From positions 137,782,351-137,846,350 of the forward strand of contig CP136062.1 in the NCBI GenBank assembly GCA_032622095.1: a stretch of 64,000 nt of DNA. The letters run 5' to 3'. Below the pieces are notes generated by a model that was not told the DNA's origin, searched no databases, and worked only from the letters and a program-made list of their open reading frames with translations. Position numbers and translations under genes: made by a program. Of this stretch, positions 7,089 through 55,438 are shown in pieces (position 1 is the first letter of the stretch; each line of letters begins with the position of its first letter). The DNA comes from Siphonodentalium dalli (Eukaryota > Mollusca > Scaphopoda > Gadilida > Siphonodentaliidae).

Positions 7089-7342
7089 CAAGCCTTGAAA
7101 TAGGGTGTCTGTCATTTGCAGAATGAGGTCCCCAGAGGGTGAATTTAGTGATGCTACCCCGCATAGTGGGCTATCATCACCAAATTCACCCTCTGGGAAC
7201 CTCATTCTGCTTACACATCAACAGAATGAGGCTCCCAGATGGTGAATTTGGTGATGCTAGCCCACTATGCTGGGTAGCATCACTAAATTCACCCTCTGGG
7301 GGCCTCATTCTGCAAATGACAGACACCCTATTTCAAGGCTTG
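7089..7342. mobile_element. hAT-type MITE, CAAGCCT family, copy 1
   Basis: Inverted termini CAAGCCTTGAAATAG...CTATTTCAAGGCTTG are flanked by a perfect 8-bp duplication TTAGTGGG (7081-7088, 7343-7350). Each half is itself a hairpin built on GAATGAGGTCCCCAGAGG and its complement, so the element is a double hairpin. This copy lacks the 130-200 bp centre present in copies 2 and 3. Eight-bp duplications and CA-starting termini fit the hAT superfamily. Confidence 0.9.
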
Positions 7343-7350
7343 TTAGTGGG

Positions 7351-9345: not shown

Positions 9346-9353
9346 TATATTGC

Positions 9354-9804
9354 CAAGCCTGCAAATAGCGTGACTGCCATTTGCAGAATGAGGTCCCCAG
9401 AGGGTGAATTTAGTGAAGCTATCCCGCATAGCGGGCTAGCATCACTATATTCACCCTCTGGGGACCTCATTCTGCTTAGGCCGTCAACTTATATGGCAGA
9501 CCTACATGTAGGATCAGATTGAAGTTCCCCAGTTGAAGTTGGTGATGTTCACCCATTGGGCACCTCAATTATGAATTTTATCTTCTGCAAATTAGGGGAT
9601 ATAGAAACTTCCTAGAAGGGAAATGTAACTAAAAACAATGTTAATTTGATACTATAGATACTTCCCAGAAGATGAGGCCTAAGCAGAATAAGGTCTCCAG
9701 AGGGTGAATTTGGTGATGCTAGCCCGCTGTGCGGGATGGCATCACTAAATTCACCCTCTGGGGACCTCATTCTGCAAATGACAGACACGCTATTTGCAGG
9801 CTTG
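9354..9804. mobile_element. hAT-type MITE, CAAGCCT family, copy 2
   Basis: Ends CAAGCCTGCAAATAGCG...CGCTATTTGCAGGCTTG are flanked by TATATTGC (9346-9353) and TATATCGC (9805-9812), 7 of 8 matching. The terminal hairpins match copy 1. The centre (about 9480-9685) is the reverse complement of that of copy 3. Confidence 0.88.
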
Positions 9805-9812
9805 TATATCGC

Positions 9813-13163: not shown

Positions 13164-16100
13164 CTGAAAAGAAAGGTGATTGCCAATTTGATCAGTGGAG
13201 TACATACACATCATAAGTCCATTCAGATCACATGACATACCTAGGTTTATTACACGCTTGCTCCTAGAAGTACAGTGTATTTGTCATTCCATATTTACAA
13301 ATATGTATGGAACGAACGTTCTATACGTATCTCATTGATGTCAAATTACGTACCTCAACCATGAAACTGGAACTATAAAATAATAGAATCATCATATAAA
13401 ATGACAAAACAAGCCACGTGTGTGCCTAAATAAACCTTTTAAGCCCATAGTTTTTAATGCACATATTCTAGGACAGTGATGTGTAATAAATGCAGAACGA
13501 CATGTGTTTTAATACAGGGTTTCCGCTATACCGGCAAAATGGACCCACTTTTGATGACCAAAACAAAATAATTTGAATCAGTATTTACTAGTAGCCTACC
13601 GGTAAATTAGCATGCCGACAGACCCGTTTAATCTCCCGCTTTGCTCATGAGTCTGCCGATTTGATCCTCGACACCCGCCTATCCCCCACAACCCTCATCT
13701 CATCTAACAGTTTGGGCAAATACATGTAAACATAAAGACAAACATTTATTTAATAAGTTTGCCATTGGTAACATTTTATAAGTCTCGCTCTTGTCGCGGC
13801 CAAGATTTTGTCAATGTCGGTGTGATCTATTGTCTATCCTAATTGGGCGCCTCAATATAATGTGTCTTAGAGCCTCCGTAGGTGTTTATTACCTTCGATT
13901 CTTGCACCTATAGATAGTTTGCGCTTGTGGCCAATTGCAATTAGAATAATGTAATGTACATATGAGTGCTGAAAATTCGTAAAGAAACACTAATTTGGTT
14001 ATGATGACATGCAGCGATAATAAGGTTGATTTTAATAGCTTGCCTCGTCCCGACTCCAGTCTATTCATCATGTACTAATAAACGAAAATGAGGAACCGAT
14101 ATATCGAAATGGGACATTTCAAATCTATTCAGCGGATATATAGACGAATACAGCTTTGACATTCATTATCCATAAAATAATTTATTTCCATCCATACATT
14201 CTGTGAAAAAATGACTGGCACATTGTAAACTGGGCATTCACTGCCGCATCCTATACATTATATGAGCGATAACTCTACATTTGCTGCTTGGGCTATTTCC
14301 GTGTCAGTACGTGACAGAGGATGCCCCGTTATTTGTGACCAGAATTTTAGCTGCTGTTTATACATTTTCAAATAATAAATAAGCCTTGGCTAAAGAGCGG
14401 TATACCACTTGCCAAATGCTAAAGAGCAATATACTACGCTTTAGCTGTATTGGCTTGACACCCTAATGAATGGTATACCGATCTTTAGCATTGATGCTAA
14501 AGAATGGTGTACCACTCATTGTGACAAACAATAAGGGCAGTATACCGCCCTTTGGCTATATGGGACTGACATGATAAAGAACGGTATACTGCTCTTTAGT
14601 GTTAGCAATGAAGAACACTATACTGCTCTTTAGTGCCAAATGCTAAAGAGCGGTATATAACCCATTAAAGGGAGGTGTACCCCCAACCCGGATACCTTCC
14701 TCAAGGGTGCCCAAACACTGGACCAGTCCCTGGTACTATAGTATTACATTGCCATATCAGCATTGGGGACTATTAACAGTAATGACACAAAAGGCTCTTC
14801 ATAATATGAATTAACGTCAAATTGTAACCATATTGTCTCAACAAATCAATGCATTTTCAGCTGGCAAATAAAACTGGCCAGTAAATATTCTGACCTGGGT
14901 ATTTTCGTATACTTCAACTTGTATTAATTTTAAATGCTTTCTTCCCCGTCCATGTTGGATAAGCAGCACACTCGTTGCCAGGATTTTTTACGCAATGCAC
15001 CAACTACATGTAGATGTTATCCGTACCGCTCTTTACTAAAGAGTCTTTAGTGCATCCGGCTAATGAGCGGTATACCGTTCTTTAGCCCCCAGCAATAAAG
15101 AACGGTATACCGGCATTTTGAAAACCCGAGAACAGACCAAGAAAACTGTTCGCAGGTTTGGATTCTCGCTCCCAGAATGAGATTCCAGATCTGATAACAC
15201 GTTGTTGGTCTGTTCCTGACCTGTTCTCGATGTTCAAATACTGACATCCGGGTCACGTCTTGGTGGTCTACTATTTGCGAACACAGAAGAATATGGATTC
15301 AAATACACCTCAAGAAACATCACCACATTATGAGAGCAGTTCTTCTTGAGGGGTTTGTTTTTTAAGCTTGTTGACGAACCTCATCTCAGAAAGTTGTGAC
15401 TTCAGACTCTTATTGATCATCACAATGCCCTAAAAGATGAAACCACTCTAAAGGACTGACCATATTGAAAGGTCGCACCACCATTTTAAATCCACAACTC
15501 TATGAGGTCACACTGGCCTATAAGGTCGCACCACTCAATTAAACAATGTAAGATCACACCATGTACAGGATGAGGACACATTATAAGGACAAACCACCAA
15601 GCCTTCAAATAGAGCATCTGTCATTTGCAGAATGAGGTCCCCAGAGGGTGAATTTAGAGATGCTATCCCGCACAGTGGGCTAGCATCACCAAATTCATCC
15701 TCTGGGGACCTCATTCTGCTAAGGCCTCATTTTCTGGGAAGTATCTACAATATTAAATGAACATCTTTCTTAGTTACTTTTTGCTTTCTGGGAAGTTTCT
15801 ATATTATAAATAGATAAAATGCATAATCGAGGTGACTAATGAGTAAATATCACCAACTTCAACTGGGGAACTTCAATCTGATCCTAGGTCTTCCTTAGCA
15901 GTTGAGGTCTAAGCAGAATTACCTGCAAATGACAGACACACTATTTGCAGACTTGCAAAGCATCCTATAAAGTCACAGCCCCCTACTGCACCCTATGAGG
16001 TCACACCATCAAATAATGTCAAACTACCCTATGAGGTAACACCATATATAAAGTCACACTGCAGTCTGTCCTTACCTTGAGGTTGTCAATCTTTCCTTTG

Positions 16101-19100
16101 ACATTCTCGTTTTTGGTAAGAGCTTTCTCAAGGCAATCTTTTGTATACAAGTTTGGATTTTTCCCACTGTCAATATACCTGAGTGAGAACAAAAATAGAT
16201 ATTACTAGCCGATAAACATACAACAAAGATTCTGCCAACAAGAGTCAATGCAAGTAAGTAATATTATAATGAGGAAGCAAATATCTAATTAGGACGAGAT
16301 TATTTGCTATCCTCTTCTGAGCACCCAAGTGGAGTGTTGAAATTCACTTTAACCCATTCTTTACAAAATACTCATGACAAGTACATGGAGTTCCCTTGGA
16401 AATGTTCGGATAATAAGTTCAACAAATGACCGTTGAACTTATTACACTCAACAATTCCAATTGTATCTCGTACATTTTTCCTGGTGTTATGTTCTGGTTT
16501 ACATATTCCATGGCCTCTATGGGTCATGATTTGCCACTTTGACCACCCCATAGGTCTCGTGACTTGGCTGACATCTTGAATTTGCACACACTGCAGACCT
16601 TTGATTTTGGCATGTGTTTAGCACTTGCGTATGTAGGGAGTAGGCAGAAATAAAAAATGGCGTGCTATTGTGTACATGCATATTGCATCACTGTAATTGA
16701 AACTTCAAAGTAATAAAAATGCTGATGCTGTGGTTCACATGCCCATAGTGCTGCTCATGTCATTGGCTGCATCTTTGATCTCGCATTGTCTGAGACTGGC
16801 CTTCATGTTTTTTCGAATAGTTGGATTACAATACTCAAATCGACAAGATGGAATCTGAATGTCAGACGAAGTTATTATTTCATGGAGTTCTGGATATGAT
16901 GAAAAAACCTCCTCGTCTGACTCTGACAATTTCTTACATTTGAATAACCAGTCATATTATGTCACATGATTGCCTAGAGAAATGCATGGTGACACTAAGG
17001 TGTTATCAACTAACTCTCTGAATTATCTACAATTTAGTTTTGTGTCAGTTTATTTTCGGTGTTACAGTGCGTAATCTGTATAAATTATAATGTTTTTTTC
17101 GTTTGTTTAACCTCATATTAAATAAATTATCAGATGAAATTATTCTCCAGTCTCTCACTTCTCCCTATTTTTCTCTCACTTCTCCCTATTTCTGCCAGAG
17201 GGAGAAGTCACTTCTCCCTATTCTCAACCTGCAAGCTGAGGCCTGTGTATAATACATTTTTAATTATACCATTCTAATGTTAAGCTTTCATTTATTCTCA
17301 CTATTTATCCAATGACAATGTACAGCCCACTCAAAACTGAAAGTATATTGGGATAGCGCTTATGAGAAAAGCGCAAACAATGTTCAAAATACGCGTGCTT
17401 TGAACAGCGCGCCCTTTGAACAGCGCGCTGGTGATTTCCCAAAATCGAAGGTCCGGCATACACATATGTCTGCATTTCCGATATATATCCAGGCCTACAT
17501 TGGAACAAATGGCTAATGTAAATATTGTATTCAGTAGCTGTTTGTATTTTTTTCAATCTTGGTAATATGTTTTGGCAATTCATTAGCAAATGTGATATAA
17601 CAGACCGTCTTGTGACCACATTTGAAAAGGTCAAATCTCGCATGGCCACTGACTGTATGTGTACATTTCACATATAATATATGATGACATAACCTGTATC
17701 ATATTAATATTGTCCACTTACATGATACATCAGGCCCATCGATAAACAACAAATAGACCAGGGACACCTCCAAATTTTGCAAATATGCACGATTGGCGTT
17801 GTATGAATAATTCGCTAAATGCTCATCAAAAGAGTTAAAAGCAAAAATATTTGTATATCAACACACTGGTATCAATCCCATCATTATGTAGCCAAAACTT
17901 ACTTAGATCAGGGGTAAAAAAAATTGGTCATATTGTCCTATACAAACTCAGTCAAGTGGACCACTACAAATTTTGTTTAGGACATCGACCTTGACTGAAT
18001 GCCAATAATCAGGTTCGCATTGAATCAACACTGAGAAATGACCTCACTATTTGAAACTTCTTGACTGGTCCCTGATGTCTATTTATTTAGTTATCGGTGT
18101 CGGGCTGTCAAATAAACTCATATTACAATATATACTCACTCGAAGACTTCCAGGGGAACATGAAAGTTCTGCATATCTGCCTTCATCTTGTCCAATTCTT
18201 GCAGTCCAGATACCATTGTTTGCCTGAGAATTAAACAAAAAGTAATCACAACATGATATTTTGATAGTTAAAGACATATTATGCATGTATGTACTTGTTC
18301 GAGTGCATGAAACTGATGAGTTAGTGTTCAGGCGCTATGCCAACTGGAGGAATGTAACATTCTACTAACATTGCCGAAAATCTGAAGCAAATTGACAGTA
18401 CCACTCCATAGAAAACATCGTCTTAAATATTTCATAGTTGTAAATTTTGCATAAATATGTATACCACAAGAGGAAAGGTGACGTAATTGGGAACTCGTAG
18501 CTATAGACAACCCTTTCCCCGAATGAAGACACAGCAACACCACCTTCTGTACCTTCAAATTTAAAGCTTTAAGTATGTTAATAAATTATATGAATTGCAT
18601 GAATTGCGGCGTATTAGATTAATCACTCGTAGCAGACAGACATGACAGACATGACTGTCAACTACGTTATTTATAAATCAGAAGTGGCTTGGGGGGGGGG
18701 GGGGGGGGGGGGGTCAGGACTGAGGAAATATGCAATGGTCAGTCCGGTAGCTTCCGGGATAATATAGCCCCCATGTTGGCTGATAAAAACTCGAAGAAGA
18801 TGATGTTGATGAATTGTCTTTTTCACGGTGTTCTGATAATCTGAACATATCCAGGAAAAGCCATTATGCGTATCAAACATTAAAAAAATACATATTTATT
18901 GTGAAATATTTTTAATACTTGTATTAGTTGTTGAAAATCGACCATAATCAAGATGGTTATTCACTTCAATTCAGAAACACCAGCGCAGGCCCTGCATTAA
19001 TATATTTTTCCAAAAAATATGTGTTCTTGAATGTGTAGCGGTCGCGTTGTAAATATAGAAGGCCGATTAATCAACAGCTCCAACGGAGCATGCTTCTTTG

Positions 19101-22100
19101 GTCCAGTGGTTAAGACGCCTTGTCTCGTCACTGAAGTTAAGCATCGTCGAGCCCGGTTAGCACTTGGATGGGTGACCGGTGGCCTGAGATTTCGGGTGAT
19201 GCCAACTTTCGGTGCGACTCCCGCATTCCACCCTTCTCCCGTTACACTGGGGGCTCGTCCGGTCCTCAGAGTCTGTGTCATGGTGCGACCGCTCTGAGAG
19301 AGGAACTTGGGTGAGGATCACTTGGTGGTGAACCTCAAAACGAGGAAGGGAGGAATGTAGCGGTCGCGTTGTAAATATAGAAGGCCGATTAATCAACAGC
19401 TCCAACGGAGCATGCTTCTTTGGTCCAGTGGTTAAGATGCCTTGTCTCGTCACCGAAGTTAAGCAACGTCGAGCCCGGTTAGCACTTGGATGGGTGACCG
19501 GTGGCCTGAGATTTTGGGTGTTGCCAACTTTCGGTGCGACTCCCGCATTCCACCCTTCTCCCGTTTCATACCGGTACACATAGTGTTTTTTCAAATCGCT
19601 CAGATTAGCCATTGAACACTGCGAAAATGACAATTAACTTTATAAACGAGAGGCCGATCACAATCGGCAGATGTTAACCCATCCCTTGACGATAAAAATT
19701 TACTATGATCGGAATCATAAATGAGAGTTTTGGTTTTGAATTATAGAGTATACTGTATGTACTATTATAGACAAATGTACATAACACAAATTATTGGAAT
19801 GTATGGGTCACAGGCATTTATATAAGAGAATGCACTGGTACAGGATATGTAATGCTAAACCACCACACCACAGCCTTGGGTTAAATGTGAAAGGTGTGAC
19901 CTGAACATGGAATAATATAGCAGAGCGTCAACAAATCTCAGGAATTGTTTATGTTGAACACTGACCTCTCTATTAAACCAATATTAAACAATTATAATGA
20001 CCTCAGACCATCTGAAGATATAACTCTGCAGCACAGATGTCCAAGTCTACTGCTAATATCATGTGATGTTTATTGTTGAATCTTTATTTTAAATTAGATA
20101 CCATAGCCTTCTTTATCAGATTATTTGCACATTGGCATAAGAGACATCAGAAAATGATATAGTCTTATCAATAGCTCCAAAGGAATGGCATGGAATTGGT
20201 GAATTTGATTTAATGTTGCTCCAAACAGATTTACCAGTACATAACACAAGATTTTGGAATGATTTAAACAAATTTGGTGTGGTGATTCGGGGGTACCCTT
20301 GGCAGAGTTATAATGGTGTTAGTTTTTCAAATTTTCAAACTTAAAAAAATAATTGTTTTTAATTATTAAAAAAAAGGAACACATTGGGAATCTTTTTAAT
20401 CAACTTGTATCATAATCATCAATATCTAAATGAAAACAAGTGGTCAATCCGGACATCACAATAAGTGTACCATACTATGGTATAGGTACACATAAAAATC
20501 AAAATAAATTAATGAATCAATAGGGGCAAAGAGGGTGTCAAAATAAACCAATATAACATGAGACATGGTATCAGACAGATGAAAGTATCAGGAATGTTGA
20601 GATGTGTTAATCTTTAACTACAGAAATCCATGCAAGTGAATGAGGAGAAACCTGGAGATATAACAGAAGAATGATTAATTGAAATTTCAAATGAGAACAT
20701 CCCTACAAATGAATAATAGATTATTCCAATTAAAACATTAGAACTGAATTGGACAGTCCATTGAATCGTGATTGTGTTACAGCTTCACCACTATCATAGA
20801 GCTATGTTGTATATACAGTGGCTAAAAATAACTAATATTTCAATAAGAGATCACTTCTGCAGTCTCTCATATTGCAGTTAAGCTGCATTATTGGTAGTTA
20901 ATTGTAATCTACCTGGGTTATCAAAAACTCAAAATCTGTTCAATTCTTAGTTGAAAAAGGGCCATAACTGTGGTATAACAAATCAGATCTAACCCATATT
21001 CGAACTTGATCTGTATTTTGAGTTGAGAAACTCACATACAAAATTTGGTTCCTATCAGTTGAAAAATTGTAGATTTATCGAAACATGCATGAATTCTATG
21101 TCAAAGGGCCATAACTCCATTAAAAAATAACTCGATATGTATTTTGGGCTGAGCAACTCGCATACCAAATTTGGTTACAATCAGATGAATTTTTTTTTAG
21201 TTATGGCAGCATGCATAAATTCTAAGTTGAAAAAGGGCCATAACTCTGTAACAAAATCTCGGACCAAACCCAAATTCGAACTCCATCTGTATTTTGGGCT
21301 GAGAAACCCATATACAAAATTTGGTTTCGATTGGATAGAAAATATTTGAGTTATCGCATTACTCGTAAAGTGTCTATGGACAGACAGACAGACGGACGAA
21401 CGACGAGTGGTCAATCCGGGCAACGACACTATGTTTACCATACTATGGTATGGGTAAACATAAAAATAACGTACTTTTTCGTAATGGCATCAGTTTGCCC
21501 AACCCGCATCATAGAAATTCAGCAGGACCACCAGAATCATAGCATATTAGCAGGATCAATTGACCGGGGGTGAGACTGACCACCACCGAGGCCTTGTGTT
21601 TAATTGTCAAACTCTATAAATATCACTAACTTTCCATGAACTGGCATACTGGTAGTTATCTTTCATGGTATGGAGAGAATTCAGAATTGTTGGAAAATGA
21701 TTGTCAATCTATATTATGCGGGTTGTCATATAGTAATATGTCTTGAAAGCCATTTGTACGTTGTAACCATGATTTTCCGGACACAGTGGATTGATTGATT
21801 TATTTATTTTTGATATAAAGACATACATGTATATTGTTTTAACAGGTTACAGGTTAACGAGAGGCCGATCACGATCGGCAGATGTTTAACCCATACCTTG
21901 GCGATAGCGACTAGCCATAACTGATAATTTGTCAAAGATATGATCACAGGAATTAATCCATATATCAGTACCCAACTTGAAATCAAAAGCTCAAATAATT
22001 TGTCTTAAGAAAGGGTTAAAGTATTTGGGTTGGGGAGGAGTAGTTTTAAATCTCATAACTCTGTCCCTATTCACACAAGGACCTCTCACTGTGAGATCCA

Positions 22101-23521: not shown

Positions 23522-23561
<40 letters not shown>

Positions 23562-26500
23562 AACAAAACTTTTTGGAATTAATTATTAGTAAATCAGCTG
23601 GAATATTGGAATATCGACAGCAAATACAGACAAACATGACTATCTCACTGGTACCAGAGACAATATGGTAAGCAAATGAATGTATTCCATATCATTGGTT
23701 TAGATGAGCATTTATAAATAGGGTATTAATGCATCTTTGACCACCTCCATTTGACCCGGTATTATAATAAATGATGGTGGTCATCATGTCCTCGTTACAT
23801 TGAATTAAGAAATGAATGGCATTTATATTATGATACGCAATATTATAAAGCGTCCATAGATGCCGTCATGAATGGAAATATATACTAAGATACAGACCAG
23901 GTCTGTATTTTATAACAATATTTATATTTAATAAAAGGTTTAGTATGTTTTAATAATACATTTCATACGGAAATCGTAAACCGGATATACATGTAGTTCA
24001 GAAGTTTAAAATCTCAAACGTTTACCGGTATAAATAACGGATCGCGCGTAATACCGAAAGCCGGAAACATTAAAAAATACGGCAAAGTATCAAACAGAAA
24101 CGGACCGCACATTATACATACATCCGGAAAACATTATTTGCTTTCAAAATAATGGGGTTTTTTTTTGTGGATTTTGTTGTCGGCGCGTTCGTAATCCAAG
24201 TATAAAATTGGTCTCGCCTAAAGTTCAAACAAAATTTAATATTTGTAATTATTATGCTAAATTTAGCAAGGAGCTAAATAAAAAAAAATTGAATTTAAAA
24301 AAAAAAAAAAACAGTCTTGAAAAAGGGTCATAACTCCTTTAAAATTAATCGGATCAAACCCATATACGGACTCGAAAAATGTTTGAGTTATAGCAGAATG
24401 CGTGAATTCTAAGTCGAAAAAGGGCCATAACTCTGTAATAAAAACTCGGATCAAACCCAAATTCGAACTCGATCTGTATTTTGGGCTGAGAAACCCATAT
24501 ACATAATTTGGTTTCGATCGGATAGAAAATGTTTGAGTTATCGCATTACTCGTAAAGTGTCTACGGACAGACAGACAGACAGACAGACGGACAGACGAAC
24601 GACGAGTGGTCAATCCGGGCAACGACACTATGTTTACCATACTATGGTATGGGTAAACATAAAAAGGAGTTTTTAACATAATTTCAGTTGTTAGGCTATA
24701 TAAGAAATCGCAAATTTTGAAACAAAAATGAGGCTGTAAAGAAATCAAAGTGAATACCAATGGTATGATGGCTGAAATTTAGAAAAATCGTAGAGTACAT
24801 GTACGTCTAGATATCGGGGCTGGCACAAAAAGCACTCGAAGGCTTAATTCCATTGTGGTCCCCTGATATGCTACCGGCCACGAGGCAGACAATATAGCTA
24901 CCACGAAATTCTCCATTTTGATACTAAAAAATAATGGTAATGACATCAATGTTAATATATTGATATTTTACATTGATAAAGCCATCATCAATGTGGATAA
25001 TATAATTTATCATCATAAGTGCTACATTTACAAGTAATCTTATGATTGTGAATATGTTTATTTTAAAAGAAATGTTCTTTTCACCGACCAGGTGGATGAG
25101 ACGCCTGGCAGATCCATTTAACATAACAAATCTGACACTCGTCTCATTCACCTGGTCTATGAATACTGACCGATATAATATTATATTAATATTAATGCTG
25201 CTGCAAGAGGTGCCTGTGGGTTCTGTGTCGGTTCGGTGACTTTGTAAATGATGGATACGCACCACTGCATATACGCACCACTGCCATGTATGGCCGGTTT
25301 TGGACTGGTCTGTCCATGACCGAAAGATGGAAACCCGAAATACAGGCAGCAGTAACAATATATGCAGAGATGAGTAATTGATTGGCAAAATTTTGGTCAC
25401 AGTTTCAATTCAGTAGTACAGAAAGGGATCTTCCTCTCGGTCCTTCAGTTTAGATAAGAGATGTTTTTTTATACAAAATTTCCGGTACTTGATGTCAATG
25501 GGTAGATGTACAGTTTTGTCAAGTCTATTCCAGAGTCTTATTCCTGTGTAGAAAAAAGACTTTTTCCCATAACAACTTACATGAGGGAGGATGAATTTCA
25601 GTTTACCTGACCGGGTTTCAGATTGATCAGCCTCATTGTCCGAAACATTTATATCCCCTTCTTTATTTGATCGTTTGAAATGTTCATTAAAATATACTGG
25701 GGCTTGCTTATCTGAGATCTTCAAAACCATTGTCAATTTCCTAAAGTTAACTCTTTCACATACCGGCAGCCAATCTACTTTTAGAAATTCCGAATAGCCA
25801 ATATGTGTCCTACAATTTAGATCTAAAATGTATCTTACTAGCCTATTCTGGGTTGCTTGTAATCGGATCTTTGTTCTTTGCGTTAGACTAGTGTACCAAA
25901 AGCTTGAACTATAGTCAAAATGACATTGAATGAGGGCCACGGATAGTTCTTTTGCAGTATTGGTTCAGGTAAGATGCCTTTCTGTACAAGAATTTCAACT
26001 TAGAGTTTGCCTTCTGCAACATGTGTGCTACCATTAGCTCACCATTAAGATGGTGGTCTAAAATGGCCCCGAGATATGTTACGGAGTCACTGGGTCTGAT
26101 GCTCACGCCATCACAGCAAACACTCAGCTGGGATTTATTTTTCAATTTATGTGGTGATCCGAAAAGAATTGATTCTGTTTTTCCCAGGTGTAAAGATAGT
26201 TTATTATCCACCAGCCAAGCGCTCAGTTTGCTCAGTTCTACGCTGAGAGTTTGTTCAATGATGTGCACATCAGATCCAGCGACAATAAGGGCAGAGTCAT
26301 CTGCATATAAGAGGAGTTGACAAGACACAGCCATGGAAGCATCGTTAACATACATGTACAGTAAAAACAGTCAGCCCTCTTAATTCAGATTGTTTGGCTT
26401 CGGCAATCCGCTACGGCAACAGTATGCCGTGGCCCAGTTTGCTTCAGCAAATTGCTTCGGCAATGCTGATTGCCGTAGCCAATTATGAAGGCTGAACAGT

Positions 26501-29500: not shown

Positions 29501-31988
29501 CGGAAGATTCTACCACACACCCGCTCTAATGGTAATAAAACGTTAAAAAAAAATTACAAATCTCAACTGAATACTTTCTAGTACTATATATTTCACTAAT
29601 ATAAATGTTTGAGTTCAACCCCCACCTGCCCCACATGCATAATAACTGTTTTATTTGTTCTGCGCACTTCTGCGCACTGTTTTGAGTTTCCGAAATAACC
29701 GTAATGTCTAAAGTAAAGATTTACTCCATAAACTTGATAAAGTCTTATTATTAAACTTTAAAGACACAAACTTCGCAAAATGTATAAGAAATGCTAAACT
29801 CAGGTTGGGTGGACTTGGGGGAGACAGATGGCACTGTACAAAAAGTCACCCCCAAAAAATCACCTTTCGTATTTAATCCCAGATATTGCTGCTGATTTCA
29901 GCTATTACAATTTATAGCTGATTTTTCACATTTCCCAGACCTGATATTTTTTTTTAGAACTAGGCCTGCCGCCTAGTAAGTAGTATTAGTAGAACAACTC
30001 CTCTTATATGCAGATGACTCTGCCCTTATTGTCGCTGGATCTGATGTGCACATCATTGAACAAACTCTCAGCGTAGAACTGAGCAAACTGAGCGCTTGGC
30101 TGGTGGATAATAAACTATCTCTACACCTGGGAAAAACAGAATCAATTCTTTTCGGATCACCACATAAATTGAAAAATAAATCCCAGCTGAGTGATTGCTG
30201 TGATGGCGAGAGCATCAGACCCAGTGACTCCGTAACATATCTCGGGGCCATTTTAGACCACCATCTTAATGGTGAGCTGATGGCAGCACACATGTTGCAG
30301 AAAGCAAACTCTAAGTTGAAATTCTTGTACAGAAAGGCATCTTACCTGAACCAATACTGCAAAAGAACTCTATCCTTGGCCCTTATTCAATGTCATTTTG
30401 ACTATAGTTCAAGCTTTTGGTACACTAGTCTAACGCAAAGATCCGATTACAAGCAACCCAGAATAGGCTAGTAAGATACATTTTAGATCTAAATTGTAGG
30501 ACACATATTGGCTATTCGGAATTTCTAAAAGTAGATTGGCTGCCGGTATGTGAAAGAGTTAACTTTAGGAAATTGACAATGGTTATGAAGATCTCAGATA
30601 AGCAAGCCCCAGTATATTTTAATGAACATTTCAAACGATCAAATAAAGAAGGGGATATAAATGTTTCGGACAATGAGGCTGATCAATCTGAAACCCGGTC
30701 AGGTAAACTGAAATTCATCCTCCCTCATGTAAGTTGTTATGGGAAAAAGTCTTTTTTCTACACAGGAATAAGACTCTGGAATAGACTTGACAAAACTGTA
30801 CATCTACCCATTGACATCAAGTACCGGAAATTTTGCATAAAAAAACATCTCTTATCTAAACTGAAGGACCGAGAGGAAGATCCCTTTCTGTACTACTGAA
30901 TTGAAACTGTGACCAAAATTTTGCCAATCAATTACTCATCTCTGCATATATTGTTACTGCTGCCTGTATTTCGGGTTTCCATCTTTCGGTCATGGACAGA
31001 CCAGTCCAAAACCGGCCATACATGGCAGTGGTGCGTATATGCAGTGGTGCGTATCCATCATTTACAAAGTCACCGAACTGACACAGATCCCACAGGCACC
31101 TCTTGCAGCAGCACTAATATTAATATAATATTATATCGGTCAGTATTCATAGACCCGGTGAATGAGACGAGTGTCAGACTTGTTATGTTAAATGGATCTG
31201 CCAGGGGTCTCATCCACCTGGTCGGTGAAATGATCATTTCTTTTAAAATAAACATATTCACAATCATAAGATTACCGGTACTTGTAAATGTAGCACTTAT
31301 GATGATAAATTATTTTATCCACATTGATGATGGCTTTATCAATGTAAAATATCAATATATTAACATTGATGTCATTACCATTATTTTTTAGTATCAAAAT
31401 GGAGAATTTTGTGGTAACTATATTGTCTGCCTCGTGGCCGGTAGCATATAAGGGGACCACAATGGAACAATGGAATTAAGCCTTCGAGTGCTTTTTGTGC
31501 CATCCCCGATATCTAGCCGTACATGTACACTACGATTTTTTTTCTAAATTTCAGCCATCAATGCATCATATCATTGGTAATGGTATTCACTTTGACTTCT
31601 TTACAGCCTCATTTTTGTTTCAAAATTTGCGATTTCTTATATAGCCTAACAACTAAAATTATGTTAAAAACTCCTTTTTATTTGCTTGTAATTTATTATA
31701 TTTGTAACCTGTTAAAACAATATAGATTATGGTGTATTATATACGTGTACTAGTATGTCTTTATAATTTATATAAAAAAAAAATCAAATAAAAAAAAATC
31801 AAATCAAATCAAAAGACGACTAAAAGTAAGAGTAAATATAACTTAGTATGAATAAAAAGTAATCACAATTTTTGATGAAGAACTGACTGTCCTTGTGGCT
31901 GGAAATCTCCAACCAAAATGCCCAGCTGTCTTGTGTTTTCGATAAACATTTCTAACTGCTGCTCCAACGTTTCCAATTTTTCCGCCAT
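13068..31988 (-). CDS. MED10: Mediator complex subunit 10
   Basis: Four coding exons on the minus strand (31867-31988, 18140-18223, 16076-16178, 13068-13163) join at phases 2, 2 and 0 into a 134-aa protein, against 135 aa in human as I recall it. Recognisable blocks are MAEKLETLEQQLEMFIENTR and QLGILVGDFQPQGQ (exon 1), VSGLQELDKM and VPLEVFEYIDSGKNP (exons 2-3), LYTKDCLEKALTKNE and VKGKID (exon 3), and ELSKVFPNEMAKYRAMRG (exon 4). MED10 belongs to the middle module of Mediator, the nuclear coactivator that links transcription factors to RNA polymerase II. The start ATG has a favourable context (ACAATGG). Introns are 13.6, 2.0 and 2.9 kb; the first is filled with retroelements. The gene appears intact, and no frameshift or premature stop is present. 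Confidence 0.97.
13240..14362. other. MED10 intron 3, proximal part; nothing recognised
   Basis: Unique-looking intronic sequence with no supportable coding exon or repeat array. Confidence 0.3.
14373..15113. mobile_element. Foldback-like element FB2 with AAAGAGCGGTATACC arrays
   Basis: Left array 14390-14665 carries about eight copies of CTAAAGAGCGGTATAC, GGTATACCGATCTTTAG and variants in alternating orientation; right array 15020-15111 carries four more. The consensus is a 26-bp palindrome. CATTTTCAAA (14363-14372) and CATTTTGAAA (15114-15123) flank it and may be a 10-bp target duplication with one change. No transposase is visible. It lies in MED10 intron 3. Confidence 0.6.
15598..15955. 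mobile_element. hAT-type MITE, CAAGCCT family, copy 3
   Basis: Ends CAAGCCTTCAAATAGAG...CTATTTGCAGACTTG are flanked by CAAACCAC (15590-15597) and CAAAGCAT (15956-15963), 6 of 8 matching. The left hairpin is complete; the right one is largely deleted (AAGCAGAATTACCTGCAAAT). It lies in MED10 intron 3. Confidence 0.85.
16076..16178 (-). CDS. MED10: MED10 exon 3
   Basis: Acceptor CTCAG precedes 16178 and donor GTAAGG follows 16076. The 103 nt encode YIDSGKNPNLYTKD, CLEKALTKNENVKGK and IDNLK, the most conserved part of MED10. Confidence 0.97.
16179..18139. other. MED10 intron 2
   Basis: An inverted pair of the segment AATAAGTTCAAC lies near 16412-16447. A 65-codon minus frame (16735-16929, starting MSESDEEVFSSYPELHEI) has plausible composition but no recognised domain. 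Short CTTCTCCCTATT tandem copies occur at 17155-17225. No further gene is supported. Confidence 0.35.
18140..18223 (-). CDS. MED10: MED10 exon 2
   Basis: Acceptor TTCTCAG precedes 18223 and donor GTGAGT follows 18140. The 84 nt encode QTMVSGLQELDKMKADMQNF then HVPLEVF. The leading G completes Leu with exon 1. Confidence 0.96.
18295..18560. repeat. Dispersed repeat, copy 1 (pair with 56415-56600)
   Basis: About 250 bp align with 56415-56600 (shared blocks GCATTCTACTAACAT, CTCCATAGAAAACA and GGCGCTATG), both in plus orientation. Coding capacity is not convincing in either copy. Confidence 0.6.
18561..19033. repeat. MED10 intron 1 segment with G tract
   Basis: About 22 consecutive G lie near 18691-18712. 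The rest shows no gene or element boundary. Confidence 0.5.
19119..19206 (+). promoter_or_regulatory. 5S rRNA-derived pol III internal promoter, 5' LTR
   Basis: The segment corresponds to roughly positions 40-120 of 5S rRNA, with box A (AAGTTAAGCATCGTCGAGC), the intermediate element and box C (GGATGGGTGACCG). The first third of 5S rRNA is replaced by tRNA-like sequence with A box TGGTCCAGTGG, so it is not a 5S gene. Confidence 0.8.
19441..19528 (+). promoter_or_regulatory. 5S rRNA-derived pol III internal promoter, 3' LTR
   Basis: Same structure as in the 5' LTR, but closer to canonical 5S rRNA (CACCGAAGTTAAGCAACGTC). Transcription from it would run outward into 3' flanking DNA, antisense to MED10. 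Confidence 0.8.
19569..20250. repeat. MED10 intron 1; GAGAGGCCGATCAC repeat fragment
   Basis: The segment AACGAGAGGCCGATCACAAT at 19645 recurs at 21857, there directly beside a LINE tail. Bases 19818-19850 contain TATAAGAGAATGCACTGG, related to the hairpin family at 52497. No gene is seen. Confidence 0.4.
20250..20495 (+). repeat. GGTCAATCCGG repeat family, copy 1
   Basis: It starts near AAATTTGGTGTGGTGATTCG and ends with GTGGTCAATCCGGACATCAC followed by a hairpin GTGTACCATACTATGGTATA. It is the most diverged of three copies. Confidence 0.6.
20925..21463 (+). repeat. GGTCAATCCGG repeat family, copy 2, with internal tandem units
   Basis: Three degenerate units of about 130-140 bp, each with AAGGGCCATAACT and ATACAAAATTTGGTT, are followed by ACAGACAGACAGACGG, GTGGTCAATCCGGGCAACG and a terminal hairpin (TGTTTACCATACTATGG). 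No coding capacity is inferred. Confidence 0.7.
21787..21850 (-). mobile_element. LINE-A-type 3' tail fragment
   Basis: On the minus strand it reads AACCTGTTAAAACAATATA, then TATGTCTTTAT, then a TGATT/AAATA simple repeat, matching the 3' end of the LINE-A copy at 31710-31815. Only the tail is present, a heavily 5'-truncated insertion. Confidence 0.65.
21851..22860. other. MED10 intron 1; nothing further recognised
   Basis: It contains the second GAGAGGCCGATCAC fragment (21857-21910) and a short C tract near 22327. No gene or element boundary was found. Confidence 0.3.
22863..23018. repeat. 78-bp tandem duplication
   Basis: Two copies beginning TACCCAATAGATATTAAGAG at 22863 and 22941 are almost identical (one base change seen). 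They lie in MED10 intron 1. Confidence 0.9.
23019..24257. repeat. MED10 intron 1 segment with 37-nt G tract
   Basis: Bases 23524-23560 are uninterrupted G. Imperfect inverse sequences flank a larger interval: AAGGCGAGACCAATTTTATT near 23459 and ATAAAATTGGTCTCGCCTAA near 24204, so 23459-24223 may be an inverted-repeat element of about 0.76 kb. No open frame of note. Confidence 0.55.
24262..24665 (+). repeat. GGTCAATCCGG repeat family, copy 3
   Basis: AAAGGGCCATAACT units, ACAGACAGACAGACAG, GTGGTCAATCCGGGCAACG and the terminal hairpin match copy 2. It abuts the 3' end of LINE-A exactly where the inverted LINE-A copy continues with its own tail, so it probably replaced or interrupted that tail. 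Confidence 0.7.
25410..25940 (-). pseudogene. LINE-A C-terminal segment
   Basis: It encodes IQCHFDYSSSFWYTSLTQRT, RLQATQNRLVRYIL and ends LSKLKDREEDPFLYY and stop. The part beyond the reverse transcriptase is typical of jockey-group LINEs. The inverted copy encodes the same C-terminus at 30573-30899. Confidence 0.9.
26372..26494. mobile_element. 123-bp MITE inserted in LINE-A reverse transcriptase
   Basis: Inverted ends CAGCCCTCTTAATT and AATTATGAAGGCTG are flanked by the 6-bp repeat AACAGT (26366-26371, 26495-26500). Removing it with one repeat restores the sequence between the GPLLF and YVND motifs, so the insertion is clear. The interior has repeated CGGCAA motifs. A 6-bp duplication is not diagnostic of one superfamily. 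Confidence 0.88.
27832..28416 (-). pseudogene. LINE-A endonuclease segment
   Basis: Apurinic/apyrimidinic-type endonuclease features are GGGVCLYI, GVGYRPP, VILLGDFNVD, LIDLIF and IGLSDHSMIF. The Asp-x-Asn and SDH catalytic motifs are intact, although the frame breaks at both ends of the segment. Confidence 0.9.
28364..28936 (-). pseudogene. LINE-A N-terminal ORF segment with PHD finger
   Basis: The finger reads C-x2-C (CSVC), C-x2-C (CDGC), a W followed by H-x3-C (WTHTRC) and C-x2-C (CTPC), the Cys4-His-Cys3 plan of PHD domains. The segment continues into the start of the endonuclease (VIHLNCRSILHKIDELR) and shifts frame at AFSETW. Confidence 0.85.
28941..29994. other. Spacer between the inverted LINE-A copies
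   Basis: It may include the LINE-A 5' UTR, whose limit I cannot place. No gene, tandem repeat or inverted termini were recognised. Confidence 0.35.
29995..31815 (+). mobile_element. LINE-A copy 2, 5'-truncated, inverted relative to copy 1
   Basis: It starts at CAACTCCTCTTATATGCAGA just before the YADD motif (30007-30018) and runs through the C-terminus (stop 30897-30899) and 3' UTR to a simple-repeat tail of A-rich and TCAAAT units near 31760-31815. A small deletion near 30442 breaks the frame. Nucleotide similarity to copy 1 is very high by eye, indicating recent activity. It lies antisense in MED10 intron 1, about 50 bp from exon 1. Confidence 0.93.
31867..31988 (-). CDS. MED10: MED10 exon 1
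   Basis: ATG at 31988-31986 starts MAEKLETLEQ; the exon ends in ...SVLHQK plus TT, followed by donor GTGATT. An overlapping longer frame (31843-32064) is in another reading frame and is not the gene. Confidence 0.96.
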
Positions 31989-37493: not shown

Positions 37494-37718
37494 ATGGCTG
37501 AAGGGGTCACTCTCACCAAAAAATGTGCTGAAGGGTACACAGGGTTTGTGATCGGCACGATCACCATTACTTAAATTGTGTTTATGAAAGTCTGGCGCCC
37601 ATTAGCAGTTTGTTTTCAGTACATTTTAATATTCGTTGGAACGTAAACAATTATTCTCTAACAGAAATCATGGCAGATACGAAAACTGAACGTCATTTAG
37701 AACGACATTTCAAATCCT
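37494..37718. mobile_element. Mutator-like palindromic element, truncated copy
   Basis: It starts GCTGAAGGGGTCACTCTCAC and matches the complete copy at 53411-53734 (opposite orientation) up to CATTTCAAATCC, where LINE-B-derived sequence begins. The far terminus is missing. Confidence 0.75.
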
Positions 37719-40700
37719 ATATATATATATATACTAGTCTAGTAGATTAAATCGCAATAATTTATAGGATTAAATTATTGACTTATTGGCTGTAATATTT
37801 TAAAAGGATTTCTGTCAAGTTGGAATTGGTGTAAACACATAGTCTAGCTTTCACATATACATGAATATAATAATTACATTATGAGAATCTTTATAATTAC
37901 AAATTTTTCGTTTTTGTTTTTGTGTGAGTTTTTCAATTGTGATATAGTGTAAACATATTTTTATTTCCAAACCCAAACAGATAACATACTATACAGATGA
38001 TACAAATATGCAAAATAGAAGAGATAAAGAGTGGAAATGAGGATCAGACAACAAGCCTGGTGGCTTATATGGGTCTTCTCCAGTTTGGCGACACGCCCCT
38101 TCCACAATAAGTGAGGGAGGGGTATCGATCAGACGGGAAAGGATTGAAATATCGGTTTTAGGAGAAATGGAGATATATAACTAAGTTTGAGTTAGGTGTG
38201 GGCACATGGAGAAGATAGTGTTAGGGATAGCAATATGCAGGGGGAGAAAGATAGATAGAGAGATAGATAGATAGAGAGAGAGAGATAGAAAGAGAGGGGT
38301 GAGATAGTAGAAGCCAGGAGGGGACAGATGAAACGTGAAATGATGACAGCGGTGGGGAGTTTTCAATAATTGAGTTGTTGTGTGATAAAATGATGCTCGT
38401 CTATAGTAAGATCCATGCGTCAGGTACCATGGGAGGGGGTCAACCACAATGGCCAATTCCTATTTCAATGGTCTTCACTGTGAATATCACAGCATCCTTC
38501 ATGTGGAATCATTTCACGTATCAGGATAATTACAAGTAAGTAACATACAAAATATTCGTTACCGGAAGGCATTTACATATACTACATATATAATGGGTAA
38601 TATCATGCTGCCGCATAACGCGGCCAGAATCCAAAGTAATTTGTTAGCCGTACTAATATTGGAAATCTTTTTGTTAGGGCAACATATGGTAGGGAGTCGT
38701 ATAGTTCTCTCCTGGGCTCTTGATAAAATGTACATTCAAAGAGATAGTGGTAAGTTGTCTCAAGTTCCACACATGAACAGAAGGGTTTTTTTTTTTGCAT
38801 GATTAGCTGTCAGGTCACAGCTCAGGTGGCTGCAGTTCAGTCTTAACCGGGTATGCAGGATATGAGATTTACGGCATTTACTATGATAAAAAATAGGGAG
38901 GTGGACGTATATGTCGCTGTTCAGTTCCTTTTTGAAGTCTTCGATTGTACTGCTGCCCTGTGTAGTTTCCGGCAGTTTGTTCCATTCGGTAATTGCAGCT
39001 GGTAAGAAAGAATCCATGTAATAGTCATAGTTAATATTCGAGGGTAGTCTTATATGTTAAAATCTGAAGTTATATCCCGGAATTGTTTGTGGATTGGTCG
39101 TACATAATTTCTTAACATTGATGGAGCAGTTCCACGTATCATTTGTTTTAAATGGCGTAGCTTGTGTTTTCTAGGGCGTGAAGAGAGGAGTTCCCAGTCA
39201 GTTTCTGATAAAAGGTGTGCATTACTCGTACTGATGGTTGCACCTGTTACTATTCGGGCCATTTCGTACTGTACCTTTTCAATGTCATCACTAAGATAAT
39301 CAGGGCAGTTATCCCACACAGGGGAGGCATATTCCAGTATTGGTCGGATAAATGTGTAATGTATTTTTTCAAGCGTTACTCTGTATAGTCTGTATCTATA
39401 TGTTTATGTACTAAATTTAGAACGACATTTCAAATCCTATATATATATATATACTAGTCTAGTAGATTAAATCGCAATAATTTATAGGATTAAATTATTG
39501 ACTTATTGGCTGTAATATTTTAAAAGGATTTCTGTCAAGTTGGAATTGGTGTAAACACATAGTCTAGCTTTCACATATACATGAATATAATAATTACATT
39601 ATGAGAATCTTTATAATTACAAATTTTTCGTTTTTGTTTTTGTGTGAGTTTTTCAATTGTGATATAGTGTAAACATATTTTTATTTCCAAACCCAAACAG
39701 ATAACATACTATACAGATGATACAAATATGCAAAATAGAAGAGATAAAGAGTGGAAATGAGGATCAGACAACAAGCCTGGTGGCTTATATGGGTCTTCTC
39801 CAGTTTGGCGACACGCCCCTTCCACAATAAGTGAGGGAGGGGTATCGATCAGACGGGAAAGGATTGAAATATCGGTTTTAGGAGAAATGGAGATATATAA
39901 CTAAGTTTGAGTTAGGTGTGGGCACATGGAGAAGATAGTGTTAGGGATAGCAATATGCAGGGGGAGAAAGATAGATAGAGAGATAGATAGATAGAGAGAG
40001 AGAGATAGAAAGAGAGGGGTGAGATAGTAGAAGCCAGGAGGGGACAGATGAAACGTGAAATGATGACAGCGGTGGGGAGTTTTCAATAATTGAGTTGTTG
40101 TGTGATAAAATGATGCTCGTCTATAGTAAGATCCATGCGTCAGGTACCATGGGAGGGGGTCAACCACAATGGCCAATTCCTATTTCAATGGTCTTCACTG
40201 TGAATATCACAGCATCCTTCATGTGGAATCATTTCACGTATCAGGATAATTACAAGTAAGTAACATACAAAATATTCGTTACCGGAAGGCATTTACATAT
40301 ACTACATATATAATGGGTAATATCATGCTGCCGCATAACGCGGCCAGAATCCAAAGTAATTTGTTAGCCGTACTAATATTGGAAATCTTTTTGTTAGGGC
40401 AACATATGGTAGGGAGTCGTATAGTTCTCTCCTGGGCTCTTGATAAAATGTACATTCAAAGAGATAGTGGTAAGTTGTCTCAAGTTCCACACATGAACAG
40501 AAGGGTTTTTTTTTTGCATGATTAGCTGTCAGGTCACAGCTCAGGTGGCTGCAGTTCAGTCTTAACCGGGTATGCAGGATATGAGATTTACGGCATTTAC
40601 TATGATAAAAAATAGGGAGGTGGACGTATATGTCGCTGTTCAGTTCCTTTTTGAAGTCTTCGATTGTACTGCTGCCCTGTGTAGTTTCCGGCAGTTTGTT

Positions 40701-41138
40701 CCATTCGGTAATTGCAGCTGGTAAGAAAGAATCCATGTAATAGTCATAGTTAATATTCGAGGGTAGTCTTATATGTTAAAATCTGAAGTTATATCCCGGA
40801 ATTGTTTGTGGATTGGTCGTACATAATTTCTTAACATTGATGGAGCAGTTCCACGTATCATTTGTTTTAAATGGCGTAGCTTGTGTTTTCTAGGGCGTGA
40901 AGAGAGGAGTTCCCAGTCAGTTTCTGATAAAAGGTGTGCATTACTCGTACTGATGGTTGCACCTGTTACTATTCGGGCCATTTCGTACTGTACCTTTTCA
41001 ATGTCATCACTAAGATAATCAGGGCAGTTATCCCACACAGGGGAGGCATATTCCAGTATTGGTCGGATAAATGTGTAATGTATTTTTTCAAGCGTTACTC
41101 TGTATAGTCTGTATCTATATGTTTATGTACTAAATTTA
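37701..41138. repeat. 1720-bp tandem duplication
   Basis: Bases 37701-39420 and 39421-41138 are nearly identical. The only difference noticed is one T in a T run (about 38791 against 40510). The unit begins with the last 18 bp of the truncated Mutator-like element and ends inside the LINE-B coding region, so it formed after LINE-B inserted. The junction shows TTTA microhomology. A recent event or an assembly artefact would both look like this. Confidence 0.95.
40323..40736 (-). pseudogene. LINE-B C-terminal segment (second copy of the duplication)
   Basis: It encodes DSFLPAAITEWNKLPETTQG and a CSC-x-ETTYHYLFEC zinc-knuckle-like region. The first copy (38603-39017) is split by a one-base difference in a T run. 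Confidence 0.85.
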
Positions 41139-48024: not shown

Positions 48025-48373
48025 AAAACATGTCCAGGAAATAGTGAGATGCGTAAAAATTCGTTAAGGAATGAAATTAATCATATGTTTAGAGAGCAAT
48101 TTTCATATTTCAGCGAAAGCTTGATGAAAAGATTCGGGAATAGCATGTAATGCTTTCGCACCACAATACTTACTTACATGTATGCCATGTATTATTATTG
48201 TTGTATATTGATATTTAATGTAAAAATCTATTCAATCCCAATCAAGCTTAACTATGCTAAGATGAAATATATACCACTATCGATTTATCAAATGCTCGAT
48301 ACACATGTAAATAGATCGAAGCGGGTGTTTTATCTCCGATGACCTAGTCCAATTTAATGATACCAATTTAAAT

Positions 48374-48952
48374 ATGTCAAATGATGTAATATCAACAATT
48401 CACTCTTTAACACACAATGTATGTTACACCGCGTTGAATGCACAAGGCATTGTTAACAAAATTAATGATTCTGATTTCATACGGCAATTAGATCGATATG
48501 ATTTCATAACTATTTCAGAAACTTGGCATCAAGACCCCGGGAATATAAGTTTAACTGGCTATCAATGTATTGATTTGAGCAGAAATACAAAAGATAACGA
48601 GAAAGGTGGAATAGCATTTTATTTTAGATCAAAGTATGCGAAGTTTGTTACACGTGTGCATAACATTCACGATATTGCGTTATGGGTAGAGTTTAACGGA
48701 GAAATATTTGGTCAAAAGTCTGATGTCATTTTCGTTTCTGTTTATCTGCCCCCACAAAATTCTACTTATTGGAAAACAAGAGATGGTTACGATTTCGTCT
48801 TTAGAGATATCGAGACAGAACTCCGCAAATATGACCCAACATCGCTTATCATTCTGGGTGGAGACTTTAATGCACGGACAGGCGGAAGGCCGGATTATGT
48901 CGCGTTTGATGAGGACAGGTTCACAACATCATCTGAAAGTTATGTCTTATAG
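48374..48952 (+). pseudogene. LINE-C endonuclease segment
   Basis: It carries the Glu motif SETW and the Asp-x-Asn motif GGDFNAR. The frame is lost at 48945-48952; the continuation IDSAKDRASLDKE is in the next frame up to 49009. Confidence 0.9.
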
Positions 48953-49008
48953 ATAGTGCGAAAGACAGGGCTAGTTTAGACAAAGAAACAAATTCGTTTG
49001 GACTTAAT

Positions 49009-54865: not shown

Positions 54866-55368
54866 TCAAATTCGCCACGGAGAGTTATCGTCTGTGTAAT
54901 AATTAACAAATGAGTTCAAAAGTTCGTCATCAACTATCACGTGGTATCCTTCTAGCGGGAAGCCGAACAGACTCATATTCCACTCATCCGGGTGCACTAT
55001 ATATCCGTCAGAGTTCAGATCCATAGCAATGACTTTCAGGGCCATGACTTCCTCGAAAAAGTCCACCAGTCGGTAACGCTCTTCTTTCCAGGCTAAATCG
55101 TCAATGAATTCTCTCAGCTTTACCTTCGATCTGCCTTCCATGACTCTGCTGAGGTAGTATAACCATTTTTTGCAATATATTTCAGCCGTCGTGGCATTTT
55201 TGCCGACGGCTGTGATATGTTCTGAGCAAGTACTCATTTTCTGCTCCGATAGTGATATGACGTCATCTTTATTCAGATCGAACGAGTGAAAAAGTTGAAC
55301 CCATCTTCTAACCAATATGAGGCCATACTCGTCACTGACTGGGTCCTGTGGTGCAGCCTCGGATTTAA
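54866..55368 (-). CDS. EF-hand calcium-binding protein, last coding exon
   Basis: The 167 codons end at a stop at 54866-54868. The 5' limit is acceptor TTCCTTATTTCAG ending at 55369, phase 1. Residues 31-42 (DLNKDDVISLSE) and 117-128 (DLNSDGYIVHPD) are EF-hand loops with acidic positions 1, 3, 5 and 12 filled by Asp, Asn, Asp and Glu/Asp. Residues 78-94 look like a degenerate third hand. Length and spacing suggest a sarcoplasmic calcium-binding or calexcitin-like protein; the exact family is uncertain. The same frame stays open upstream to ATG 55513 except for TAG at 55439-55441. That ATG would start a hydrophobic leader (MANNMILVALSFLTMVFLYY). No donor of the right phase joins the leader to this exon, so the 5' structure is unresolved. 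Confidence 0.8.
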
Positions 55369-55438
55369 CTGAAATAAGGAACGTGATATAAAGTTTAAAG
55401 TTAGCAATATGGAGTATGTCCGACAGTGCAGTCAAATT

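What the first reader, a model, noticed from the sequence alone, without database searches (positions are those of the whole stretch)
19034..19568. Animal TRIM whose LTRs contain a 5S rRNA promoter, resembling plant Cassandra
Two 213-bp LTRs (six differences by eye) flank only 109 bp with a tRNA-Pro primer site and a purine tract. Each LTR carries the 5S rRNA box A, intermediate element and box C. Cassandra TRIMs of plants have 5S sequences in their LTRs; the same architecture in an animal would be convergence or wide dispersal. I also recall TRIMs reported in bivalves, so novelty must be tested.
Basis: partly seen in the sequence, partly recalled or inferred. Interest (0 to 1): 0.88.

Follow-up and report, generated by a model that had tools for sequence, protein, structure and literature searches.

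The report
Mini-retrotransposon with 5S-derived terminal repeats
A short parasitic DNA element in an unnamed animal genome copies itself like a retrovirus-type transposon but carries a piece of the host's 5S ribosomal RNA gene, and next to it a tRNA-gene-like switch, in its repeated ends; animal elements with 5S pieces were already known, so the new part is the combination.

Summary
Two 213-bp LTRs (six differences) flank 109 bp with a tRNA-Pro-type primer site and a purine tract. In the window's own 2.23-Gb genome it is a dispersed family: 28 of 31 other fetched copies with both outer ends have exact 4-bp target duplications, as do 8 of 10 complete solo LTRs. LTR 86-168 matches the host's 5S genes, nt 34-113; closest copies differ at 1-2 of 55 nt.

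It is not the first: Kojima 2024 (PMC10886601) described Ajax (5S in LTR, nemerteans) and Helenus (tRNA in LTR, including bivalves). This family differs from both as described: a perfect tRNA-type A box just upstream of the 5S piece (67 of 71 LTRs), a B-box-like motif downstream (not preferentially conserved), and 4-bp duplications plus a tRNA-Pro site as in animal Helenus, not Ajax. I call it a new hybrid variant of TRIMp3. Pol III transcription and mobilisation by a Gypsy-type element are inferred. Whether 5S-free sister LTRs exist could not be tested.

The parts
19034..19246 (+). 5' LTR (TGTAGCGG...GTTACA)
   Evidence: the same ends in most fetched copies
19051..19058 (+). TATA-like AAATATAG, about -35 to -28 from the inferred start (LTR 18-25); also in 3' LTR
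   Evidence: read by eye; lies in a well conserved block (conservation string); function inferred
19099..19109 (+). tRNA-type A box TGGTCCAGTGG, 5' LTR (LTR 66-76)
   Evidence: 11/11 to recalled consensus, reached by 1.9% of shuffles; exact in 67 of 71 aligned LTRs
19119..19201 (+). 5S rRNA-derived segment, 5S nt 34-113 (LTR 86-168)
19135..19149 (+). 5S box A (nt 50-64; box limits recalled)
   Evidence: register; variants
19152..19157 (+). 5S intermediate element (nt 67-72; limits recalled)
   Evidence: identical in 64 of 71 LTRs
19165..19177 (+). 5S box C, first part (nt 80-92), followed by a 4-nt insertion relative to 5S
19211..19221 (+). B-box-like GGTGCGACTCC (LTR 178-188)
   Evidence: 10/11 to recalled consensus, reached by 0.65% of shuffles; identical in 48 of 71 LTRs, not preferentially conserved
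19248..19262 (+). primer binding site TGGGGGCTCGTCCGG (tRNA-Pro 3' end complement; assignment recalled)
19247..19355 (+). internal domain, 109 bp, no recognised gene
19342..19355 (+). polypurine tract GAGGAAGGGAGGAA
   Evidence: exact, with the following TG, in 37 of 41 internal copies
19356..19568 (+). 3' LTR (ends GTTTCA here, GTTACA in most fetched copies)
19421..19431 (+). tRNA-type A box, 3' LTR
19441..19523 (+). 5S-derived segment, 3' LTR
19533..19543 (+). B-box-like motif, 3' LTR

Best explanation
A terminal-repeat retrotransposon in miniature (TRIM) of the TRIMp3 kind, in an animal genome, whose LTR carries a piece of the host lineage's 5S rRNA gene (nt 34-113: box A, IE, box C) fused behind a tRNA-type A box. 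SHOWN: LTR-internal-LTR structure, TG..CA ends, primer site, PPT, 4-bp target duplications, dispersal (matches on eight of nine contigs, a truncated copy on the ninth), solo LTRs, tandem forms, 5S match to host genes. INFERRED: RNA polymerase III, recruited through TFIIIA/TFIIIC on the 5S boxes and/or TFIIIC on the A box, starts near LTR 50-55 of the 5' LTR. Both promoter types place the start there: the 5S register puts +1 at LTR 53, and an A box at LTR 66 puts it some 10-16 bp upstream. The RNA runs through the element, which mostly lacks a T4 stop, into the 3' LTR or the flank. tRNA-Pro primes the first strand, LTR 53-213 serves as the repeat for strand transfer, the PPT primes the second strand, and the enzymes of an autonomous LTR element (probably Ty3/Gypsy type, as Kojima argues for animal Helenus) insert the copy.
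For: 44 matching rows, 40 of 1598 candidates scored; exact 4-bp TSD in 28 of 31 copies (about 24 of 27 after removing four duplicated loci, by eye) and in 8 of 10 complete solo LTRs (by eye; two of the eight share flanks); PBS and PPT conserved; 5S match to host genes; A box 67/71 and LTR 59-85 the least diverged of seven LTR segments between the three groups (uncorrected column-permutation P 0.019, 0.008, 0.007); no T4 from LTR1:53 to the 3' LTR in 22 of 27 two-LTR copies and none in the 3' LTR in 26 of 27, while 12 of 20 fetched host 5S genes have T4 or more directly behind and 7 more have it four bases on; LTR-LTR divergence median 0.019 in 30 elements, window included, zero in one.
Against: No transcript data. 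Within the family the 5S boxes are not more conserved than other LTR stretches (A-to-C rank 0.485); between groups 102-146 gives uncorrected P 0.047, 0.024 and 0.34, and 86-146 gives 0.12, 0.018 and 0.91. The A box alone is significant in one of three comparisons (P 0.22, 0.21, 0.009) and its rank within the family is 0.197. The common group has drifted from host 5S (mean 4.0 errors in 55 nt). The B-box-like motif is among the more variable parts. The window copy has a T4 in its 3' LTR (19512) and no TSD; absence of T4 was not tested against chance. Rfam 5S scores stay below gathering. No autonomous partner was found.
Confidence: 0.75

Rival explanations
1. A SINE (tRNA/5S-headed, LINE-mobilised) present as tandem or paired copies that only looks like an LTR element.
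For: A box, 5S boxes and B-box-like motif are typical SINE-head material; single 213-bp units exist.
Against: Fixed LTR-109 bp-LTR units with PBS and PPT, TGT..ACA ends, nearly constant 4-bp TSDs, no A-rich or repeat tail seen at the ends.
Confidence: 0.03
2. A TRIM with an inherited 5S-derived LTR segment that is now a Pol II-driven element; the 5S and tRNA boxes are relics.
For: 5S boxes show no clear excess conservation within the family; TATA-like AAATATAG upstream could serve Pol II; B-like motif varies.
Against: LTR 59-85, which holds the A box, is the least diverged part between groups; the 5S core keeps 1-3 errors of 55 to host 5S in 13 of 14 LTRs of the two smaller groups, 9 in the other; T4 directly behind the 5S part, as in most host 5S genes, is lost.
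Confidence: 0.2
3. A true member of Ajax (Kojima 2024) in another animal lineage, by descent or transfer.
For: Same idea: TRIM under 600 bp with only the promoter part of 5S in its LTR (PMC10886601).
Against: Ajax: 5-bp TSD, tRNA-Leu primer, 421 or 434 bp (PMC10886601); here 4 bp, tRNA-Pro-type, 535 bp.
Confidence: 0.07
4. A Helenus (tRNA-in-LTR TRIM, bivalve type) that acquired a 5S segment between A and B boxes, for example by template switching. This is a view of origin and is compatible with the best explanation.
For: A box exact, B-like motif 10/11, joint hit 0 of 2000 shuffles; 4-bp TSD and, in some bivalve families, a tRNA-Pro primer are reported for Helenus (PMC10886601).
Against: No 5S-free sister LTR seen; the queries for it (pattern first sent, DNA query first sent) did not complete. 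B motif not preferentially conserved. ARAGORN finds no tRNA in the window or in 11 loci.
Confidence: 0.4

Closest known systems
Ajax (Kojima 2024, PMC10886601; two nemerteans)
   Same: Animal TRIM with box A, IE and box C of 5S in the LTR; only part of 5S; more LTRs than internal parts counted
   Different: 5-bp TSD, tRNA-Leu primer, 421 or 434 bp; a tRNA-type A box is not mentioned in the sections I read
Helenus (Kojima 2024; fungi, animals incl. bivalves, one plant)
   Same: tRNA-type A box in LTR; animal members make 4-bp TSDs; some bivalve families use tRNA-Pro
   Different: GGTTC conserved in its B box; here 5S stands between the boxes and B is degenerate; 5S in Helenus LTRs is not mentioned in the sections I read
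Cassandra (plants; known here from listings, titles, Kojima's text and recall)
   Same: TRIM with 5S-derived promoter region in LTRs; tandem arrays occur (title of PMC7215508)
   Different: Plant lineage, 565-860 bp (Kojima's text); independent origin likely
biv-TRIM (Satovic et al. 2019, PMC6934838)
   Same: Bivalve TRIM, 202-218 bp repeats, tandem forms
   Different: 77-80 bp internal part, PPT mostly GGGGAGA, no unambiguous PBS; '5S rRNA' and 'RNA polymerase' do not occur in its main text
SINE3 and 5S/tRNA chimeric SINEs such as AmnSINE1 (listing, passages, and recall)
   Same: 5S (and in AmnSINE1, by recall, tRNA) promoter pieces in one retroelement
   Different: LINE-mobilised, no LTRs, no PBS/PPT

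Membership tests
TRIM | Short (<1 kb), two LTRs 100-250 bp, no coding capacity, PBS and PPT | tested here: met
   535 bp, 213-bp LTRs, PBS, PPT; one search lists a 158-aa mechanical ORF on the - strand across it, for which 9 candidates gave no relative at E up to 10
TRIM | Target-site duplications of constant length | tested here: met
   28 of 31 exact 4 bp; one 5, one 3, one none; window copy none
TRIMp3 (Kojima) | Small-RNA-gene-derived Pol III promoter sequence in LTR | tested here: met
   5S boxes matching host 5S; A box
TRIMp3 (Kojima) | Actual Pol III transcription | not testable with these tools
   no RNA data
Ajax | 5S promoter segment in LTR | tested here: met
Ajax | 5-bp TSD | tested here: not met
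   4 bp in 28 of 31; one 5-bp match
Ajax | tRNA-Leu primer | tested here: not met
   tRNA-Pro-type site (assignment recalled)
Helenus | tRNA-derived sequence with A and B boxes in LTR | tested here: inconclusive
   A box perfect, B 10/11 and variable, no tRNA called
Helenus (animal) | 4-bp TSD | tested here: met
Cassandra | Sequence kinship with plant Cassandra outside 5S | not tested
   no Cassandra sequence held
biv-TRIM | 77-80 bp internal domain with TGATCCCAAAGGAC (in all but one of its species) and PPT GGGGAGA (in most) | tested here: not met
   internal part is 109 bp; neither string is in it (by eye on the sequence)

The most novel reading that the evidence does not exclude
A third, independent origin of 5S-bearing LTRs, made by nesting a 5S gene fragment inside a tRNA-type promoter, so that one LTR holds a composite type 1 / type 2 Pol III promoter whose two parts predict the same start site.
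Probability: 0.35. Interest if true: 0.62.

Novelty: new variant of a known kind. Interest (0 to 1): 0.47.

Why it matters
It adds a family to the few LTR elements known with 5S promoters, suggesting that capture of Pol III promoters by TRIMs is recurrent. Because the host's 5S genes and hundreds of candidate LTRs (623 first-look candidates, 40 scored) lie in one genome, one can ask whether the element's promoter tracks the host 5S gene, and whether a tRNA A box can work with a 5S control region.

Tried and rejected
Pattern scans in viral contigs and GTDB genome contigs: 0 matches each. In some searches the pattern was loose enough to catch animal 5S genes and still found none, so these collections say nothing about relatives. 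Antisense ORF protein search: 9 candidates, none at E up to 10. Host identification: the LINE reverse transcriptase gives matches of 26-47% identity in the 120 of 249 listed, the few named ones being Pinctada, Crassostrea, Saccoglossus, Prochilodus and two bacterial MAGs (that these are from bivalve symbionts is partly recalled); this fits a marine invertebrate but proves nothing. Idea that the 5S part keeps following host 5S: not supported; the common group has drifted and the two small groups keep the more host-like state. Idea of a functional B box: weakened. Autonomous partner: all 40 scored matches to the internal part are short TRIM-length matches; a pattern with an extended primer site gave two loci that share with the TRIM only 16 bp of primer site and the TTACA before it, with no LTR pair and no frame over 123 aa in the 7 kb fetched. 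The LTR at C9:86175622, followed by the primer site, has a 17-bp gap and unrelated sequence after the primer site. An RNA model, a tree and a structure prediction were not made. Six further stretches with internal parts (L092-L097) lack a complete outer LTR and were left out of the counts, as were 8 of the 39 loci in the TSD count.
Full report
Observation. The two repeats are at 19034-19246 and 19356-19568, 213 bp each, six substitutions, no gap; 109 bp lie between. The internal part starts with one base and then TGGGGGCTCGTCCGG, the complement of the tRNA-Pro 3' end (recalled), and ends GAGGAAGGGAGGAA. No other copy is in the window.

5S content. Against a recalled human 5S sequence the 5' LTR scores 83 (2000 dinucleotide shuffles: mean 22.3, max 39) and the 3' LTR 80 (mean 21.6, max 46); the best tile starting outside 18.7-19.7 kb scores 36. 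Rfam's 5S model matches the 5' LTR weakly (20.3 bits, gathering 38, E 0.18) and the 3' LTR not at E up to 1; among six further loci searched, only the three LTRs of L025 appear, at 21.1-21.6 bits. The host's own 5S genes were found with RF00001: 47 of 95474 first-look candidates scored, all 47 over the cut-off, on contigs C2, C6 and C9. I compared LTRs with the 12 of 20 fetched 5S loci that were on the right strand. LTR 86-168 of the window's 3' LTR aligns with host 5S nt 34-113; four LTRs tested score 107-124 against L048, shuffled maxima 39-47. In the group of L036/L037/L039/L043 (which I separated by hand, 92-94% identical to the window LTR) all 8 LTRs have 2 errors in the 55 nt of host nt 38-92; in that of L045-L047 the six LTRs have 1, 1, 1, 2, 3 and 9; in the common group (57 LTRs, the window's two included) the mean is 3.98, range 2-13.

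tRNA-type motifs. Just upstream of the 5S piece stands TGGTCCAGTGG, 11 of 11 to the A-box consensus (recalled); just downstream GGTGCGACTCC, 10 of 11 to the B-box consensus. 1.9% and 0.65% of 2000 shuffles of the 5' LTR reach these alone, 0 of 2000 reach the pair. Among 71 aligned LTRs the A box is exact in 67, the B motif identical in 48, with 6 more GGTGCGATTCC. LTR 59-85 is the least diverged of seven segments between the three groups (uncorrected P 0.019, 0.008, 0.007 by column permutation); the 11-bp A box alone is significant in one of three comparisons. The 5S stretch 102-146 gives P 0.047, 0.024 and 0.34. The B motif is more variable than the LTR average in all three comparisons. ARAGORN calls no tRNA in the window or in 11 loci. 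So the A box is well supported; the B box may be a relic.

Family. The own genome (2.23 Gb, 9 contigs, unnamed) gave 44 rows, with only 40 of 1598 candidates scored, 40 of 623 for LTR 1-85 and 40 of 282 for the internal part; true numbers are therefore unknown. The rows lie on C1-C8; C9 has a truncated copy. I fetched 39 stretches covering the 43 rows other than the window. Of 31 copies with both outer LTR ends, 28 have exact 4-bp duplications, one 5, one 3, one none; the other 8 loci lack an outer end by my criterion. By eye, four pairs (L009/L011, L019/L024, L029/L030, L037/L039) share flanks, so they are duplicated loci; distinct insertions are about 27, 24 of them exact. Of 13 further stretches, 10 hold a complete solo LTR; by eye, 8 have exact 4-bp duplications (L082 and L083 share flanks), L084 has 3 bp, L076 none. 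L025 and L035 are LTR-I-LTR-I-LTR tandems. LTR-LTR K2P divergence over 30 elements, window included, has median 0.019, window 0.029, L036 zero, so some insertions are recent. The window copy has no duplication (AATG/TACC), perhaps from recombination or decay.

How it would work. The 5S register places +1 at LTR 53; an A box at LTR 66 predicts a start in the same place (inference). A TATA-like AAATATAG lies at about -35 to -28; a listing abstract (PMC10137851) gives -31/-24 for such boxes in two Pol III genes. From LTR1:53 to the 3' LTR, 22 of 27 two-LTR copies have no T4, and 26 of 27 have none in the 3' LTR; the window copy, not among these 27, has one in its 3' LTR at 19512 and T6 at 19586 behind it. 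Of 20 host 5S genes, 12 carry T4 or more directly behind the match, 7 four bases on, and L053 none in the 12 bases shown. This allows read-through in the element, though I did not test it against chance. Reverse transcription from tRNA-Pro, PPT priming and 4-bp duplications point to an LTR-element machinery; Kojima assigns animal Helenus, with 4-bp TSDs, to Gypsy partners (PMC10886601, Results read). Two loci with TTACA + spacer + an extended primer site exist; they resemble each other behind the primer site but show no further kinship with the TRIM.

Comparison with print. I read the abstract, Methods, Results, Discussion and figure/table texts of PMC10886601, not its supplement; abstract, first Results part and passages of PMC6934838; passages of PMC12859917, PMC7215508, PMC7245038, PMC8010984; PMC10853983 (Cassandra mirroring 5S promoter changes) only in the listing. 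Ajax already is an animal 5S TRIM. The listings of searches showed no title or abstract start on an LTR with both tRNA and 5S boxes; several of them listed only the best rows.

Open. The key origin test, a scan for 5S-free sister LTRs, was requested many times and never answered (last). The host species is unknown.

Noticed in passing
window 48311-51797 (+): LINE-type element: a long reverse transcriptase frame (RVT_1) with an endonuclease-like frame before it (by eye) and further frames after; listed relatives 26-47% identical.
   Followed up: partly
window 37695-39419 and 39415-41138: Direct tandem duplication of about 1725 bp at 99.94% identity: very recent or an assembly artefact.
   Followed up: no
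window 24659-26319 and 29995-31681: Inverted pair, 96% identical, in a region of reverse-transcriptase frames.
   Followed up: no
window 7089-7343, 9353-9805, 15597-15919: Related self-complementary repeats in several copies on both strands, probably a foldback/MITE-like family.
   Followed up: no
window 23524-23560; also 18700-18713: Run of 37 G and a G run at 18700-18713, the start of the stretch I read.
   Followed up: no
L048-L067 (host 5S genes): At least three types of 5S genes with different flanks: a C9 array with ~1.36-kb spacing, a C2 cluster, and identical copies on C6 and C9.
   Followed up: partly
L100:1501, L101:1501: Two loci sharing TTACA + C + tRNA-Pro primer site with the TRIM and resembling each other behind it; possible remains of an autonomous partner's lineage.
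   Followed up: partly
window 54866-55438 (-): 190-aa frame that by eye has EF-hand-like loops; no Pfam or PDB match.
   Followed up: partly
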